Positions 3,969-9,465 of a stretch of DNA of 41,349 nucleotides are shown here, in pieces (the stretch's first letter is position 1; each line of letters opens with the position of its first letter). The stretch covers positions 1 to 41,349 of the forward strand of contig CAIOKO010000147.1 of assembly GCA_903858935.1 (NCBI GenBank). The letters run 5' to 3'. Made by a program: the position numbers and the translations under genes. Source of the DNA: an uncultured Schlesneria sp. (GTDB taxonomy: Bacteria; Planctomycetota; Planctomycetia; Planctomycetales; Planctomycetaceae). Under the pieces are notes generated by a model, which ran no database searches, was not told where the DNA came from, and was given only the letters and a program-made list of their open reading frames with translations.

Positions 3969-4955
3969 TTACATACCCGGGAATATCCACAACTTTGGGC
4001 GACCGGCCAGAAGTCGTCCGACTTCACGGTTGTTCTGAGCCGATTTCCAGTCCGACTGACGTCGGCCGCTCTTGTAGATGATGTCGGTCACGCAAAGGTC
4101 GCAATGATTATCATCGTCTGCAGCGGCGAGATCGGACGGTGGCGGGCTGACTACGGAGCAACTTGAAATCTGCTGAATCTGAATCGTTTGCCAGGGAACA
4201 CAACGGGTTCTGAGCAGACTATTGCCATCGGGACCGGGGATGACTTCCTGCGTCATACAGTTTGACAGTTTCAGTCCGTCCAGTCCGGCATGGGTAAGGA
4301 TCGCGTTATAGGCCTGACCTGATTCATCACGAATCGCCACCTGTGAACCGAGCGGAATTTCGGACAAATTCCGCTCCAGTTCAGCCGGTGAGCATTTCAG
4401 TCGATTGATTGTCGAATCCATTGTCGGTTCGAACCAGCGCTGAATGCGGCCGCTGCCAAACTCGAACGCGTCTACCGTTAAGTCTTCGGCCTGATATTTC
4501 ATTCCTTTTGGAGCGAATTTGTCTGAGGGGGGGGCCACGAGGGAATAGTGAGAGATTTGAGACGTCTCGACGATCTGGAACGGCGTATGGTTTTTCCTGG
4601 CATATTTTTGACCATCGTGATCGTCAAGTACTTCCTGCGACATGCTGTTGACCAGCACCAGTTTTCCGGGCTCTTTGCGCAGGAGGGTTCCCTGAAACGG
4701 CTGATTCAGGGCGGTGATGCTGACATACGAACCGACAGGAGTTCGGTCAATTTCCAGTTGCAACACTTCACGATCGATCGATGCAACTCCATTCGGAAGT
4801 ATTTCAGAGCCAGACGGCGGTGTTTCAGAGCCGTATGAATTCAAAGAAATGACGCGATCTTGTGACGCAAAAGAGTCGTGCCGGGCTGATCCAATGACAG
4901 CGCAACCGGATGTCGGCAACAGGAATAAAAGCAAACAGCTGGAAATTGCTTTCAT
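3969..4955 (-). CDS. Lipoprotein with two tandem copies of an ~85-residue domain
   Basis: I place the start at the ATG at 4955 (328 residues), because it begins a textbook lipoprotein signal: MKAISSCLLLFLLPTSGC with Cys18 as the lipidated residue. The longer open frame upstream lacks signal character. Residues 62-146 and 190-275 are homologous to each other. Both contain PVGS/PLGS, a Q..QGTLL or Q.YNAIL strand, N.M(S/T)QEV, a DG loop, PFQ/PWQ, I...S.YSLV or I..CSVV, and PPSD. The duplicated unit looks like a small beta-barrel. The C-terminal 50 residues contain an acidic, Cys-containing patch (ADDDNHCDLC). It stands alone. The protein is probably anchored to a membrane facing the periplasm. 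The family is not recognised. Confidence 0.75.
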   Translation of the reverse strand: MKAISSCLLLFLLPTSGCAVIGSARHDSFASQDRVISLNSYGSETPPSGSEILPNGVASIDREVLQLEIDRTPVGSYVSITALNQPFQGTLLRKEPGKLVLVNSMSQEVLDDHDGQKYARKNHTPFQIVETSQISHYSLVAPPSDKFAPKGMKYQAEDLTVDAFEFGSGRIQRWFEPTMDSTINRLKCSPAELERNLSEIPLGSQVAIRDESGQAYNAILTHAGLDGLKLSNCMTQEVIPGPDGNSLLRTRCVPWQTIQIQQISSCSVVSPPPSDLAAADDDNHCDLCVTDIIYKSGRRQSDWKSAQNNREVGRLLAGRPKLWIFPGM

Positions 4956-5260
4956 GGGCACGACACGGTTTCGATGGAGAGTTTCCTTCGTTTTTAATCG
5001 CCAAGAGAAGATTATTCTTGACGGATGCGGAGAGTCGAGAGAGGAGTTCAACGCCGAATCGGCAAACCGATCTCAGGCACGCAGATGGCTCCGACATCGG
5101 CGACTTTTGCCGGTGACAGGACAAAAGCCGGGATCATTGGCTAGCCCGACGCGCAACTTTTGACGTTATGCACTTTCGATATCTGGAGTGAAATTAAGAA
5201 TTCAACGCAAAGGCGTTAGGACGCAAAGAATGCAAAACGCGTTAACGCCATCGTTTCTTT
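4956..5260. other. Intergenic stretch with degenerate short repeats
   Basis: No gene is supported here. Positions 5205-5231 contain two ACGCAAAG words (AACGCAAAGGCG, then GGACGCAAAG). A related inverted sequence (TTGCGTTAAA near 5483) lies on the far side of the second MITE-like copy, so that copy may have landed inside an older dispersed repeat. Confidence 0.35.
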
Positions 5261-5432
5261 CAAAGTAGCGATCACCGTTCCGAGTGATGAGCATTCGTCG
5301 GAAAGGATTCGAGCGTTGCCTTAACATCGGAACAAAGACTTCGCTTGAATTCCTGAATTGAAAACGTGCTGATTCGTATTTGCCTGGTTCTCGAACAATG
5401 CTCATTACGCGAAGCGATGATGGCTACTTTGG
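5261..5432. repeat. MITE-like element, copy 2 (inverted relative to copy 1)
   Basis: The left arm at about 5261-5295 and right arm at 5397-5431 are imperfect inverted repeats (CAAAGTAGCGATCACCG against CGAAGCGATGATGGCTACTTTG). On the reverse strand the whole ~172 bp aligns with 4-175, sharing ATGAGCATTGTTCGAGAACC, AAGGCAACG and TTTCCGACG in the same order and spacing. Copy 2 has accumulated several arm mismatches, while copy 1 arms are perfect, so copy 1 looks younger or under constraint. Small open frames inside are a by-product. Confidence 0.72.
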
Positions 5433-5622
5433 TCTGAGATGGAACCTCCCTGGCTTCGATTGCGTCGCTGTTCCTTGGTGTCGTTGCGTTAAACTCCAAT
5501 TGAATTCGCATATTCTTGTGGGAAACCCGTTCTCGACGTCGCAAACCCGCAACTTCACACTTGCGTACCGGGCTGACGTGTCATGTGGTTCCAAACATTA
5601 AGAAACAAGTTTCATTTTTCCA
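5433..5622. other. Intergenic stretch before the array promoter
   Basis: I see no supported gene. The sequence becomes AT-richer near 5600 as it approaches the promoter-like site. Confidence 0.4.
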
Positions 5623-5651
5623 TTGACGTGCGACAAATTTCGATATATTAT
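5623..5651 (+). promoter_or_regulatory. Sigma70-like promoter reading into the 20-bp array
   Basis: TTGACG at 5623-5628 and TATTAT at 5646-5651 are separated by exactly 17 bp, the consensus spacing. Each hexamer differs from consensus by one base. The predicted start, near 5658, lies about 85 bp before the tandem array, and no protein-coding gene follows on this strand until 7099. It may therefore drive a non-coding transcript through the repeats or, less likely, a very long leader for the gene at 7099. Confidence 0.5.
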
Positions 5652-5740
5652 CTTGACGCCGCTTGGTTTGGACGGCGGAAATTGCGAATCTGGCCACGGC
5701 GGGGAATCGCCGAAAGAGTTGAAAGTAGAACTCGACAGTG

Positions 5741-6466
5741 CTCAAAGTTGCCCAATCGTTTCCATAGTTGCCCAACCGTTTCCATAGTTGCCCAATCGTT
5801 TCCATAGTCGCCCAACCGTTTCCATAGTCGCCCAACCGTTGTCATAGTTGCCCAACCGTTTTCATAGTTGCCCAACCGTTTTCAAAGTTGCCCAACCGTT
5901 GTCATAGTTGCCCAACCGTTTCCATAGTTGCCCAATCGTTGCCATAGTTGCCCAATCGTTGCCATAGTTGCCCAACCGTTGCCATAGTTGCCCAACCGTT
6001 TCCATAGTTGCCCAACCGTTTCCATAGTTGCCCAACCGTTTCCATAGTTGCCCAACCGTTTTCAAAGTTGCCCAACCGTTTCCAAAGTTGCCCAACCGTT
6101 TCCATAGTTGCCCAACCGTTTTCAAAGTTGCCCAACCGTTTCCAAAGTTGCCCAACCGTTTTCAAAGTTGCCCAACCGTTTCCAAAGTTGCCCAACCGTT
6201 TCCATAGTTGCCCAATCGTTTCCATAGTCTCCCAATCGTTTCCATAGTCGCCCAATCGTTTCCATAGTCGCCCAATCGTTTTCATAGTTGCCCAATCGTT
6301 TTCATAGTTGCCCAATCGTTTTCATAGTTGCCCAATCGTTTTCATAGTTGCCCAATCGTTTCCATAGTCGCCCAATCGTTGCCATAGTCGCCCAATCGTT
6401 GCCATAAATGCCCAATCGTTGTCATGGTTGCCCAATCGTTGTCATGGTTGCCCAACCGTTTCCAAA
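5741..6466. repeat. Tandem array: 36 copies of a 20-bp unit plus a 6-bp partial copy
   Basis: Starting at 5741 the sequence repeats with a 20-bp period, consensus tccatagttgcccaaccgtt, to 6460, then a partial unit to 6466. No insertion or deletion occurs in 720 bp. Unit positions 3, 4, 11-15 and 17-20 are the same in every copy. Variation is almost confined to position 1 (t 26, g 9, c 1), 2 (c 22, t 14), 5 (t 28, a 8), 9 (t 29, c 7) and 16 (c 20, t 16). Only three other changes were found outside these, in units at 6221, 6401 and 6421. Variant types cluster: position-16 c fills 5961-6200 and t fills 6201-6440. The block at 6041-6100 recurs at 6101-6160. There are no unique spacers, so this is not a CRISPR array. 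Each unit holds GTTGCCCAAC, a near-palindrome. Confidence 0.97.
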
Positions 6467-6588
6467 TGTATGTTCAAACCGAAAAGATTTTTTGTCTCGG
6501 ATAACACTGATGCGCATGGCGCGAGCTTCGCCCGCAACCCGATCACGAGAAGAATTTGAACCACGAAATACACGAAAAAAGAACAGTT
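6467..6588. other. Intergenic stretch after the array
   Basis: No gene is supported. The segment GAACCACGAAATACACGAAA at about 6558 resembles a short motif I recall as commonly dispersed in planctomycete intergenic DNA, which would need a genome search to confirm. Confidence 0.3.
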
Positions 6589-6740
6589 GAGGCGAGCCGC
6601 GTCAGCCCCTGGATTCTTTTTTCCGCGAATACGGACTGCCGGTCGTTTGACATAACCCCCCCCCGGCATTTGCGTGGTTCAATTCGTCGTCGAACGTGAC
6701 GGACGAAGAGTCCGAGGGCTAACGCACCTCGGCTCGCCTC
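6589..6740. repeat. Candidate ~150-bp element with 11-bp inverted ends
   Basis: GAGGCGAGCCG at 6589-6599 is the exact reverse complement of CGGCTCGCCTC at 6730-6740. The interior includes a run of nine C at 6656-6664. Minus-strand frames through it have no ribosome site and look repeat-derived. With a single copy in the window its status as a repeat is unproven. Confidence 0.35.
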
Positions 6741-7098
6741 GACAACGCGTGAACGACGATCCAATTCTGAACCCGTCGACCGACGCGTATGAACCGGCAG
6801 TGCCGGTCCGGGGTGAAAATTCCTGAATGGAACTTATTGGTTAAAAGTCAGTTGATAAAAACGCTGCAAGCATCGGAACACTCATCAACTTAGCGGCTCG
6901 GTGGAAACCTCGTCCTCCCGAAGAAAATGCCGGGAAACCTGATTTCTTCTGCGTCCTTATGTTACTTCCGGCGCGATTGCAAAAAGGAAACGTGATTTCG
7001 AATGAGAATCCTGAATCCTCGATGGATCAGAGTCTGTTGCTGTGTTACTTTAATTGATCAATTGCTGAACGTTTTTTGACTGAAGTGAGGGGTTTCTC
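6741..7098. other. Upstream region of the DUF1549 operon
   Basis: No gene is seen. A 12-bp perfect palindrome AATTGATCAATT lies at 7052-7063, some 36 bp before the TTG start at 7099, a place where an operator could sit. AGTGAGGGG at about 7084-7092 is the ribosome-binding site for that gene. Confidence 0.35.
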
Positions 7099-9465
7099 TT
7101 GCGCTCGACTCGTGCGACCTTTCGAGGATTTTTTATAGCGCTTGCCGTTACAGGCACCTGCTTCGGTCTCGGTGCTCAAATCGCCTCGGCCGACGCGATT
7201 TCGTTTGAGGATGATGTCATCCCTGTACTGACCCGGTTCGGGTGCAATTCTGGAGGCTGTCACGGAAAACTGGCCGGGCAGAATGGGTTTAAGCTTTCCC
7301 TGCGCGGGTTTGCTCCTGACGCGGATTTTGAATCGATCACCCGGGAAGCGGTTGGTCGACGTGTGAATCGGGCGATGCCGGAACTGAGTTTGCTCGTCGT
7401 TAAAGGATTGAATGCCGTTCCGCATGGTGGTGGTCAGCGCCTCGCACCCGATTCGCCCGGCGCGAAGCTACTTTCCGACTGGATTCGGAGCGGCATGCCA
7501 GGCCCGAAGAAGGACGAGCCGATGCTGGTGAAACTTGAGTTGACTCCCGCCACGGCAACGCTGGTGATCGGCGAAAAAATTCCTCTCACGGTGACAGCGA
7601 TCTATGACGACGGACATCGACGGGACGTCACTTGGCTCAGTCAATTCAACTCCCGGGATCGGGCGATGATTGATGTCTCGGATAAGGGTGAAGTTCAAGC
7701 GTTGCGACATGGCGAGACGGTCGTCACCGGAGCGTTTCGCGGTTTCGTGGAAGTCGCGGCTTTGACTGTTCGTTACGAAAACAAGGTGGAACCGGCGTGG
7801 TATGCCAGCCGGAATAATTCCGTTGATGAGGCGGTGTTTGACAAGCTGGCTCAACTTCAGATCGAACCGAGTCCACTCTGTGATGACGCGACCTTTTTGC
7901 GACGAGTGTCGCTCGATCTCTTAGGCGTTCTGCCGACGTCGGTGGAGGTCCGTACGTTCCTGGCTGATCCCCGAACAGATAAACGCGCGCAACTGGTCAA
8001 CGCCTTATTAGAACGTCCGGAATTCGTTGATTATTGGACTCATTGGCTGGGTGACCTGTTACAGAATCGCAAAGAACGGGATCACGATGTCCGTGGGGTC
8101 AAAGGAGTTCGCGGCTTCCATGACTGGTTACGAGCTCAAGTCGCGGCCAACAAAAGTTGGCGCGAGATTGCCACATCGGTTCTCACGGCGAAAGGTTCGT
8201 GCGTTGAACAACCCGCAGTCGGCTATTTCATTGTCACGGTTGGCGAGATGGAGGCTCACGAATCAGAAGTGGCCGATTCCGTAGCCCAGGCATTTCTCGG
8301 GACTCGCATCGGTTGTGCACGTTGCCATAATCATCCGCTCGAAAAATTTACCCAGGATGATTACTACCGATTTGTTGGCTTCTTCTCTCGTGTGGCACTC
8401 GATCGCCAGCGGCCAGAGGAACTTCCGACCACGCTAAAGGTCGGGACACGGCATCAGCTTAATTTATTACGGCAGATTGAGCAGGAACAAAAGAAGCTGG
8501 AGAAGCTTAAGGCTGATAACTCTGAAGCGAACAAGATTGAAGAAACTGAGAAACGGATTGCCGACATTCAGCGGCAAGTCGAACAGGCCGGTCAGTCACG
8601 TGTTGAGGTAAGGCAACCCCGGACCGGACAAATGCTGGCCCCGCGTCCGCTCGATCGGACCGAGACCAGCATTGCCAGCGGTAGCGATCCCCGTGAGGCA
8701 TTCGTCAACTGGATGACTGATCGATCGAACCCGTATTTCTCTGGTGCGATGGTTAATCGGTTATGGCGACATTTTCTCGGGGCTGGTCTGGTTGAACCGG
8801 TAGACGATTTGCGAGCGACGAATCCTCCTTCAAATCTGGCGCTGTGGAAAACTTTGAATCAGGAATTTGTGGCGAGTGAATACAGTCTGAAGCACGTGAT
8901 GCGTTTGATCCTGAATTCACGGACGTATCAACTGATGTCAGCCACGCGGGAATCGAATTTCCGCGATAGCCGGTTTCTTTCGCATTTCCAGGCACGTCGC
9001 TTACCTGCCGAGGTGCTGCTCGATGCGATCTGCTCGGTAACAGATCAGCCGGAGTCCTTTACCGGTTATCCGGTTGGACTGCGGGCTGTGCAGATTCCTG
9101 ATCCATTCACTGAATCGTACTTTCTGACGTTGTTCGGCAGGTCTGCTCGCACGACAGCCTGTGCTTGTGAGCGAAGCGGCGACGTAACGCTGCCTCAATT
9201 GTTGCACCTGCAGAATGGCGACGGCTTGTACGAGAAAATTCGATCTGGCGACGGCCTGCTGTCAAAGTTAGTGGCGGCACAGGCCGATGATTCCACTGTG
9301 GTCGATGAACTGTACCTGACGACCTTATCGCGGTTTCCGACATCTGAAGAACGAGCTGGAATCAACAAGGCGATTGCTGGCGTTGATCGCGCCGATCGAC
9401 TGGAGTTCTTCGCCGATCTGCTCTGGGCGCTGATGAATTCCAAAGAATTTACATTCAATCATTAA
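7099..9465 (+). CDS. DUF1549/DUF1553 secreted protein with Ig-like domain and heme-type Cys motifs
   Basis: This 788-residue planctomycete protein starts at TTG, chosen because AGGGG lies 6-7 nt upstream and a signal peptide follows at once (FIALAVTGTCFGLGAQIASA). Residues 49-55 are CNSGGCH, a wide cytochrome-like motif. Residues ~145-225 form a bacterial Ig-like (BIG2) domain. The DUF1549 domain follows, with CARCHNHP near 406-413, a CxxCH heme-type motif. Residues ~455-500 form a charged coiled coil (EQEQKKLEKLKAD). The DUF1553 domain closes the protein (MVNRLWRHFLGAGLVEPVDD). These proteins are exported and are usually encoded beside DUF1501 partners, as here, 24 bp downstream. The biochemical role is not established; heme binding is inferred from the motif alone. 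Confidence 0.93.
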   Translation: MRSTRATFRGFFIALAVTGTCFGLGAQIASADAISFEDDVIPVLTRFGCNSGGCHGKLAGQNGFKLSLRGFAPDADFESITREAVGRRVNRAMPELSLLVVKGLNAVPHGGGQRLAPDSPGAKLLSDWIRSGMPGPKKDEPMLVKLELTPATATLVIGEKIPLTVTAIYDDGHRRDVTWLSQFNSRDRAMIDVSDKGEVQALRHGETVVTGAFRGFVEVAALTVRYENKVEPAWYASRNNSVDEAVFDKLAQLQIEPSPLCDDATFLRRVSLDLLGVLPTSVEVRTFLADPRTDKRAQLVNALLERPEFVDYWTHWLGDLLQNRKERDHDVRGVKGVRGFHDWLRAQVAANKSWREIATSVLTAKGSCVEQPAVGYFIVTVGEMEAHESEVADSVAQAFLGTRIGCARCHNHPLEKFTQDDYYRFVGFFSRVALDRQRPEELPTTLKVGTRHQLNLLRQIEQEQKKLEKLKADNSEANKIEETEKRIADIQRQVEQAGQSRVEVRQPRTGQMLAPRPLDRTETSIASGSDPREAFVNWMTDRSNPYFSGAMVNRLWRHFLGAGLVEPVDDLRATNPPSNLALWKTLNQEFVASEYSLKHVMRLILNSRTYQLMSATRESNFRDSRFLSHFQARRLPAEVLLDAICSVTDQPESFTGYPVGLRAVQIPDPFTESYFLTLFGRSARTTACACERSGDVTLPQLLHLQNGDGLYEKIRSGDGLLSKLVAAQADDSTVVDELYLTTLSRFPTSEERAGINKAIAGVDRADRLEFFADLLWALMNSKEFTFNH

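What the first reader, a model, noticed from the sequence alone, without database searches (positions are those of the whole stretch)
5741..6466. 36-copy, indel-free 20-bp tandem array with variation confined to five positions
The 20-bp unit runs 720 bp without a single insertion or deletion. Eleven unit positions are identical in all 36 copies, and nearly all variation is two-state at five sites (1, 2, 5, 9, 16). Variant states are arranged in blocks: position-16 c through 5961-6200, then t through 6201-6440; alternating ttc/tcc before aaag at 6121-6200; a 60-bp block at 6041-6100 recurring at 6101-6160. This suggests growth by segmental duplication with later constraint, or a very recent expansion. 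The 20-bp period is close to two helical turns, so the repeated GTTGCCCAAC half-palindrome would face one side of the helix, as in a multi-site protein-binding array, centromere-like site or titration decoy. I know of no described system of this form in planctomycetes.
Basis: partly seen in the sequence, partly recalled or inferred. Interest (0 to 1): 0.78.

Follow-up and report, generated by a model that had tools for sequence, protein, structure and literature searches.

The report
Promoter-led non-coding satellite array family
The 36-copy repeat is real, but it is one member of a family of repeat arrays found in three related planctomycete species (with traces in a fourth), most of which lie downstream of the same promoter-like sequence, so the repeats may be copied into RNA; what that RNA would do is unknown.

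Summary
The array is as described: 36 copies of 20 bp, no indels, 11 invariant columns. It is not unique: the genome holds about 20 related arrays built on the core CANNGTTGCCCA(A/T), with periods of 20, 35, 89 and about 142 bp. Among 170 family genomes the core is clearly enriched only in this species and two relatives. The window array has an orthologue in G004 with the same leader but a different homogenised unit; the syntenic place in G001 lacks it. The core diverges less than the rest of the array, though no less than nearby non-coding flanks. A promoter-like element "P" (box TTCCAAACGTTAAGAA, TTGAC, 17 bp, TATTTT-like), almost confined to four species, lies upstream in the same orientation of 14 of 24 arrays and, in an independent set, 14 of 16; controls gave 0 of 64 and 0 of 49. 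The array RNA would be unstructured. Reading: the array is the 3' module of a promoter-led, probably non-coding unit, perhaps a multivalent RNA platform. Neutral or selfish satellite growth is equally likely. There are no expression data.

The parts
5589..5604 (+). Conserved upstream box of element P (TTCCAAACATTAAGAA; family consensus TTCCAAACGTTAAGAA, with dyad TTCnnAACGTTnnGAA); possible regulator site about 62 bp before the inferred start
   Evidence: in 41 aligned copies each box column is 38-41 of 41 identical, but the set was selected on this motif; 15/16 identical to the G004 orthologue
5623..5651 (+). Sigma-70-type promoter-like site of P: TTGACG, 17 bp, TATTAT
   Evidence: Scan (10 of 12 matches); G004 orthologue TTGACG-17-TATTGT with the spacer only 11/17 identical; the -10 region was not in the P search pattern yet reads T31 A31 T25 T30 T22 T27 of 41
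5652..5745 (+). Short leader between promoter-like site and array; holds a possible small stem-loop 5697-5712 (CGGCGGGGAATCGCCG) and part of a dispersed repeat module
   Evidence: Alignment with G004; window 5699-5730 also matches G000:C219 and G001:C182; 82 nt of it folds no better than shuffles, z -0.19
5741..6464 (+). 36-copy, 20-bp tandem array, consensus AGTTGCCCAACCGTTTCCAT; core GTTGCCCA
   Evidence: TRF; unit table; six listed matches of the family profile R1 inside it
5155..7005 (.). Intergenic interval of 1851 bp with no counterpart found in syntenic G001, where 194 bp lie between the same two conserved flanks
   Evidence: blastn
3969..5051 (-). Upstream, divergent gene (360 aa), no Pfam family; best matches 78-80% identical in G001, G004 and G005
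7099..9465 (+). Downstream gene (788 aa) with PSCyt2 (DUF1549) and PSD1 (DUF1553) domains
   Evidence: Pfam

Best explanation
The array is the 3' module of a promoter-led, probably non-coding transcription unit ('P-unit'), copies of whose promoter-like element occur 24-49 times in each of four Schlesneria-like species. A sigma-70-type promoter with an upstream dyad box would transcribe a leader (at other loci often built of hairpin modules, very short here) and then the array. The array RNA would be unstructured and present tens of copies of GUUGCCCA. Most likely this RNA works as a multivalent binding platform or sponge for an RNA-binding protein or a small RNA. Copies grow by tandem duplication and are homogenised within each locus, while the core changes more slowly than the rest of the unit. 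Shown: the family, its distribution, the P-array association and its orientation, the slower core, the lack of RNA structure. Inferred: that P is active, that the array is transcribed, that selection (not homogenisation) holds the core, and what binds it.
For: P (at least 16 of 21 matches) lies sense-upstream of 14 of 24 arrays (163-1742 bp), 0 of 64 control scans, and of 14 of 16 arrays with at least 400 bp upstream in an independent set found by the array profile alone (332-1180 bp), 0 of 49 controls. P is nearly confined to four species: 38, 24, 49 and 29 copies in G000, G001, G004 and G005, one each in G006 and G018, none in the other 164 of 170 family genomes. The unselected -10 region has a TATTTT-like consensus. 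At the window locus G004 keeps box 15/16, -35 6/6, spacing and -10 5/6 while the spacer is 11/17 and the array unit has changed. Core mismatch is below the rest of the array in all six pairs compared, e.g. 10/136 v 61/315, 15/132 v 75/266, 3/88 v 27/151, and at the window locus 8/48 v 22/70, and core diversity is below the rest in all six arrays tested. Predicted RNA folds no better than shuffles: z +1.07 sense, +1.93 antisense, 20 shuffles each. No sense ORF of 80 aa or more overlaps the window array.
Against: No RNA data. The same orientation would follow if all copies descend from one composite element. 12 of 40 arrays have no recognisable P in the up to 2 kb scanned. The 3' non-coding flanks beside four of the orthologous pairs diverge by 0.105-0.159, no more than the array cores (0.06-0.19), so the core is slow only against the rest of the array. 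Three of the six pairs come from one locus. Rotation tests are near-extreme in three of six arrays only. In the pair G000:C219/G004:C43 the -35 is 4/6 and the -10 2/6 although the box is 15/16, and in two close pairs the upstream flank is as conserved as the box. At one locus (C242) G004 keeps P and leader with only a four-core remnant, and G005 has 29 P boxes but one weak profile match, so the array is dispensable to the unit. 10 of 27 arrays, not the window's, overlap a mechanical sense ORF of 100 aa or more, one of 397 aa; five of these ORFs of 200 aa or more have no Pfam family, but coding there is not excluded. Only 9 of 40 array ends carry a T-run, and no terminator hairpin was looked for beyond the window. 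No partner was found.
Confidence: 0.4

Rival explanations
1. Selfish or neutral satellite: the arrays are a lineage-specific satellite family that multiplies with an intergenic element (P plus modules) and grows by slippage and unequal exchange, with no host function.
For: Few species, dispersed, variable period and copy number; homogenisation within the locus with a fixed unit difference between G000 and G004; presence or near-absence at orthologous loci; leaders are mosaics of dispersed modules; core no slower than nearby non-coding flanks; prokaryotic satellites are described (PMC6749651, passages).
Against: Core slower than the rest of the array in all comparisons made; P box kept 15-16 of 16 in five orthologous pairs, three of them with clearly more diverged flanks; several arrays kept at orthologous places in two or three species.
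Confidence: 0.4
2. DNA-level protein-binding array: a DNA-binding protein occupies the repeated core as a regulator decoy, nucleoid or partition site.
For: Asymmetric 8-bp core repeated tens of times and slower to change than the rest of the unit.
Against: All 28 P-associated arrays have one orientation to P; spacings of 13, 14, 19-21 and 52-55 bp do not keep one helical face; the two genes beside the window array show no par or rep domain; no clear enrichment of the core in the other 12 genomes of the genus.
Confidence: 0.13
3. Assembly artefact: the array or its copy number was made by short-read assembly.
For: Draft genome; many sibling arrays sit at contig ends.
Against: The window array is internal to its contig, has 17 unit types and a longest internal repeat of 76 bp, and an orthologous array exists in another assembly, G004.
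Confidence: 0.03
4. The antisense strand encodes a repeat protein (ORFs of 84-137 aa run through the window array).
For: Antisense ORFs 5581-5835, 5862-6155 and 5902-6315; a sub-threshold match of the last to DUF7372 over 15 residues (25.4 bits, cut-off 27).
Against: Period 20 shifts the frame at each copy; the ORFs end inside the array; the G004 unit read in antisense holds TGA and TAG once per 20 bp, hence stops in all frames (unit sequence).
Confidence: 0.01

Closest known systems
Prokaryotic non-coding satellite families (Subirana and Messeguer 2019, PMC6749651; passages seen, abstract included)
   Same: Tandem, related arrays dispersed in one genome, mostly species-specific. The paper reports transposed non-coding satellite families with long repeats only in Leptospira interrogans and Methanocella conradii among the species it surveyed.
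   Different: The window unit is 20 bp, below that long-repeat class; siblings have hierarchical units of 89-142 bp; 28 of 40 arrays tested lie downstream of a shared promoter-like element, which the passages seen do not mention.
NsiR1 tandem small-RNA array of Nostoc (PMC9045159; abstract and passages seen)
   Same: Tandem repeats in a region upstream of a gene, read as RNA, with divergent outer copies.
   Different: There about 60-nt RNAs in 12 copies each have their own promoter; here one promoter-like site precedes 36 copies of 20 bp, and many loci exist.
LTRR sequences of Nostoc sp. PCC 7120 (PMC2408588; passages seen)
   Same: Tandem intergenic repeats distributed over a genome.
   Different: No shared upstream promoter is mentioned in the passages seen; sequences were not compared here.
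CsrB/RsmZ-type protein-sponge RNAs (recalled, no call)
   Same: Many copies of one short motif in one RNA titrate a binding protein.
   Different: Those motifs are GGA in hairpin loops (recalled); here the predicted sense RNA is unstructured and the motif is GUUGCCCA; binding is untested.

Membership tests
Prokaryotic non-coding satellite family | Head-to-tail tandem repeat | tested here: met
   TRF; unit table
Prokaryotic non-coding satellite family | No coding function | tested here: inconclusive
   Window array: period 20, no sense ORF of 80 aa or more, antisense stops in the G004 unit. Siblings: 10 of 27 overlap a sense ORF of 100 aa or more, five ORFs of 200 aa or more without Pfam family
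Prokaryotic non-coding satellite family | Related arrays at several places of one genome | tested here: met
Prokaryotic non-coding satellite family | Repeat longer than 30 nt (that paper's long-repeat class) | tested here: not met
   Window unit 20 bp; sibling arrays 35, 89 and about 142 bp
CRISPR array | Unique spacers between repeats | tested here: not met
   Units are contiguous and near-identical
Iteron or partition centromere | Adjacent rep or par genes | tested here: not met
   The two flanking genes have no Pfam family, and PSCyt2/PSD1; genes further off were not tested
Tandem small-RNA array (NsiR1 type) | A promoter in every repeat | tested here: not met
   Only 9-of-12 hits at five places in the array; the one 10-of-12 site lies upstream
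Protein-sponge RNA | Repeated binding motif in one RNA | tested here: inconclusive
   Repeated core and upstream promoter-like element shown; transcription not shown
Protein-sponge RNA | Binds and titrates a regulator | not testable with these tools
   No binding data
Known RNA family (Rfam 15) | Match at or above gathering score | tested here: not met
   0 matches in the window and in 12 array or P loci

The most novel reading that the evidence does not exclude
A lineage-specific network of dozens of RNAs, all fired from copies of one boxed promoter, carries satellite arrays as multivalent, unstructured binding modules: a bacterial counterpart of transcribed satellite RNA that titrates or assembles a protein partner.
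Probability: 0.27. Interest if true: 0.82.

Novelty: new variant of a known kind. Interest (0 to 1): 0.6.

Why it matters
In the prokaryotic survey seen (PMC6749651, passages) dispersed non-coding satellite families are rare and their advantage is called not obvious. Here such a family is tied to a shared promoter-like element in constant orientation. That makes the question whether bacterial satellites are idle DNA or transcribed regulators directly testable by RNA-seq at many loci and in several related species. The P element is also a clear handle for finding the regulator that reads it.

Tried and rejected
RNA structure of the array: folds no better than shuffles on either strand; the alignment of 19 units of about 142 bp has a consensus energy no better than column shuffles, z 0.12 sense and -0.23 antisense. 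The consensus fold of the leader backbone (25 rows) gave energy 0.0, because its slot holds different hairpin modules; apparent compensatory changes seen by eye were not counted, so none are claimed. Rfam: no match. Mobile carriers: no match in viral contigs with one exact pattern, in plasmids or phages. A common neighbouring gene: none seen among 20 proteins taken from near arrays. Orientation to the nearest gene: mixed (that script left out ORFs overlapping the arrays, so it says nothing on whether arrays lie in ORFs; one search does). Rho-site and Chi-like ideas were considered and not tested. T-run at array ends: 9 of 40 against about 5% of random 40-base windows (there the window's row was taken at a stray core-like site past the array). 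Antisense coding in the window: disfavoured. Literature searches found no description of this kind of array in Planctomycetes; a general sponge search listed nothing to the point.

For the last reason the main reading went from 0.42 to 0.40, the neutral rival from 0.38 to 0.40, and the novel case from 0.28 to 0.27.

Full report
Tandem Repeats Finder reports one array in the window, 5746-6464, period 20, 36.0 copies, no indels. Neighbouring units are more alike than shuffled ones (1.34 against 2.37 differences, 0 of 5000 shuffles as low), as expected of local duplication.

IT IS ONE OF A FAMILY. The pattern CANNGTTGCCCAW occurs 203 times in the window's genome against 12 for the reversed control. 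Among 170 genomes of the family it stands out in G000 (203), G001 (92) and G004 (82); the next highest count is 19. A stricter two-core pattern is found in 1 of 392 genomes drawn from the phylum, the window's own; G001 and G004 are not among the rows of that draw. A scan of the GTDB-based collection found a similar pattern in 10 stretches, from two MAGs titled uncultured Schlesneria sp., whose contig numbers and lengths match G001 and G004; records of the window's own genome may be left out there. A sequence-only profile (R1) of the about 142-bp unit, made from 19 units, found 72, 35, 64 and 1 matches in G000, G001, G004 and G005 and none in the other 11 genomes of the genus; 150 first-look candidates per genome were scored, so counts may be low. 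The listed rows fall at 19 places in G000 by my count, and C91 adds one.

ARCHITECTURE. Sibling arrays use the same core at different spacings: pure 20 bp (C147 and C44), alternating 14/21 (C27), 89-bp units (C162), and a hierarchical unit of about 142 bp with cores typically at 20, 20, 14, 20, 13 and 54-55 bp. Many lie at contig ends. Neighbouring genes are unrelated to each other in the 20 proteins scanned. Of 27 arrays, 5 overlap a mechanical ORF of 200 aa or more and 10 a sense ORF of 100 aa or more; the five longest such ORFs have no Pfam family. The window array overlaps only antisense ORFs.

ORTHOLOGUES AND TURNOVER. The upstream neighbour gene has close matches in G001, G004 and G005. 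In G004 the same leader is followed, up to the contig end, by 20-bp copies reading GGTTGCCTAACCGCTGTCAT, a unit that differs from the window's throughout: concerted evolution. In G001 the flanking regions are syntenic but 194 bp stand where the window has 1851 bp, without an array. In G005 only part of the upstream gene aligned in the stretch taken. Other arrays are shared by two or three species at orthologous places, judged by flank similarity. At another locus (C242) G004 aligns over P and leader but not over 621 bp of the array interval, and holds four cores there.

THE CORE. In six arrays (36, 19, 4, 3, 4 and 2 units; a seventh with one unit was dropped) the GTTGCCCA columns are less diverse than the rest; by rotation of the core mask the ranks are 1 of 19, 3 of 34, 3 of 141, 43 of 138, 16 of 88 and 79 of 141, so support is uneven. 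Between orthologous arrays the core mismatch rate is lower than the rest in all six pairs compared, 0.03-0.19 against 0.18-0.34; three of these pairs share one locus. Against this, the 3' non-coding flanks of four pairs diverge by 0.105-0.159, so the core is not slower than its surroundings; rather the rest of the array is faster. Unit exchange between copies may produce part of that.

THE P ELEMENT. Upstream of the window array is TTGACG-17-TATTAT at 5623-5651. A DNA search with the leader found dispersed copies of its 5' part. A 47-base pattern with up to 3 mismatches found 6, 4, 11 and 8 copies in G000, G001, G004 and G005, none in the other 11 genomes of the genus, and no control hits. The 18-mer CTTCCAAACGTTAAGAAA with up to one mismatch gave 38, 24, 49 and 29, one each in G006 and G018, and none in the other 164 of 170 family genomes; reversed-control hits were at most one per genome. 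In 41 aligned copies the box is nearly invariant (the set was selected on it), the -35 reads TTGAC, and the unselected -10 reads T31 A31 T25 T30 T22 T27 of 41, with a G before it in 24. In five orthologous pairs the box is 15-16 of 16; in two of these the flank is equally conserved, and in C219/C43 the -10 is only 2/6. The box has a dyad, TTCnnAACGTTnnGAA, centred about 62 bp before the inferred start; that it is a regulator site is inference. That the four species form one clade was not tested with a tree.

P BELONGS TO THE ARRAYS. Scanning up to 2 kb around 24 arrays for the 21-mer CACCTTCCAAACGTTAAGAAA, 14 have at least 16 of 21 matches upstream in the array's orientation, and 0 of 64 control scans do (antisense upstream, both strands downstream; highest 15). 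The window array scores only 16 of 21 here, but 64.9 by a longer weight matrix, in whose training set it was; matrix scores of control scans were all below -30, and five arrays had intermediate scores of -9 to 3. An independent set of 20 places, found by profile R1 alone, gives 14 of the 16 with at least 400 bp of upstream sequence and 0 of 49 controls. Of 150 shuffled 2-kb windows the best score was 16, so the threshold is slightly permissive. Orthologous pairs inside these sets are not independent.

LEADERS. Between P and array other loci carry about 0.3-1.7 kb of dispersed modules, several palindromic. Seven of 14 leaders folded at z of -1.5 or below in sense, some as low in antisense. A conserved backbone (M2-M3) matches along its length only in the same four species among the five candidates scored per genome; its first 37-46 nt hit nine further family genomes as a dispersed module. 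In the window the leader is about 90 nt.

MECHANISM. Because 28 of 40 arrays follow a promoter-like element in one orientation, and the window array is unstructured and non-coding in sense, I favour a transcribed multivalent RNA module. Each step from 'promoter-like' to 'transcribed' to 'binds something' is inferred. Descent of all copies from one composite element would give the same orientation without function, and the core is not slower than its flanks, so neutral or selfish growth is equally likely. A DNA-level array is less likely.

COMPARISON. By kind this is closest to the prokaryotic satellites of PMC6749651 (passages), with hierarchical siblings and a shared promoter-like element as the unusual parts. 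NsiR1 (PMC9045159, passages) and LTRR (PMC2408588, passages) are looser parallels. The lake dataset paper PMC8121793 was seen only in a listing. No description of this family turned up.

Noticed in passing
window 5255-5442 (in the 600 bp upstream of the array): A dispersed repeat here is shared with the downstream flank of the second pure 20-bp array (G000:C44, 82% over 187 bp) and, inverted, with the upstream flank of the G004:C179 array (80% over 255 bp).
   Followed up: partly
L113 1-420 and L077 just upstream of the array: Both carry a long inverted repeat, GCGCAAGCGAGGGATCTT...AAGATCCCTCGCTTGCGCGTCGGGCTAACG, just before P or the array; a remnant seems to flank window 5148-5580.
   Followed up: no
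L200 1638-1779, L184 1972-2121, L074 11905-12062 and others: A leader backbone ...CCTGACGACGACAATTGATCTTTGACATCTTGGAA... followed by a hairpin slot is conserved among P-units of four species and gave no Rfam match in the loci scanned; possibly a new structured RNA.
   Followed up: partly
L205 3431-3560: A module of about 130 bp in this leader hits dozens of places in G001, G004 and G005: an abundant dispersed repeat.
   Followed up: no
window 6549-6600: Short motif TTTGAACCACGAAATACACGAAAAAA; similar 11-bp-phased CACGAAA repeats are, from memory only, common in planctomycete intergenic DNA.
   Followed up: no
L155 (G001:C182) and L187 (G005:C296), upstream of P: 685 bp upstream of P are 90.8% identical between G001 and G005, while G000:C219 matches only the last 149 bp (88.6%); the flanks have different histories.
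   Followed up: no
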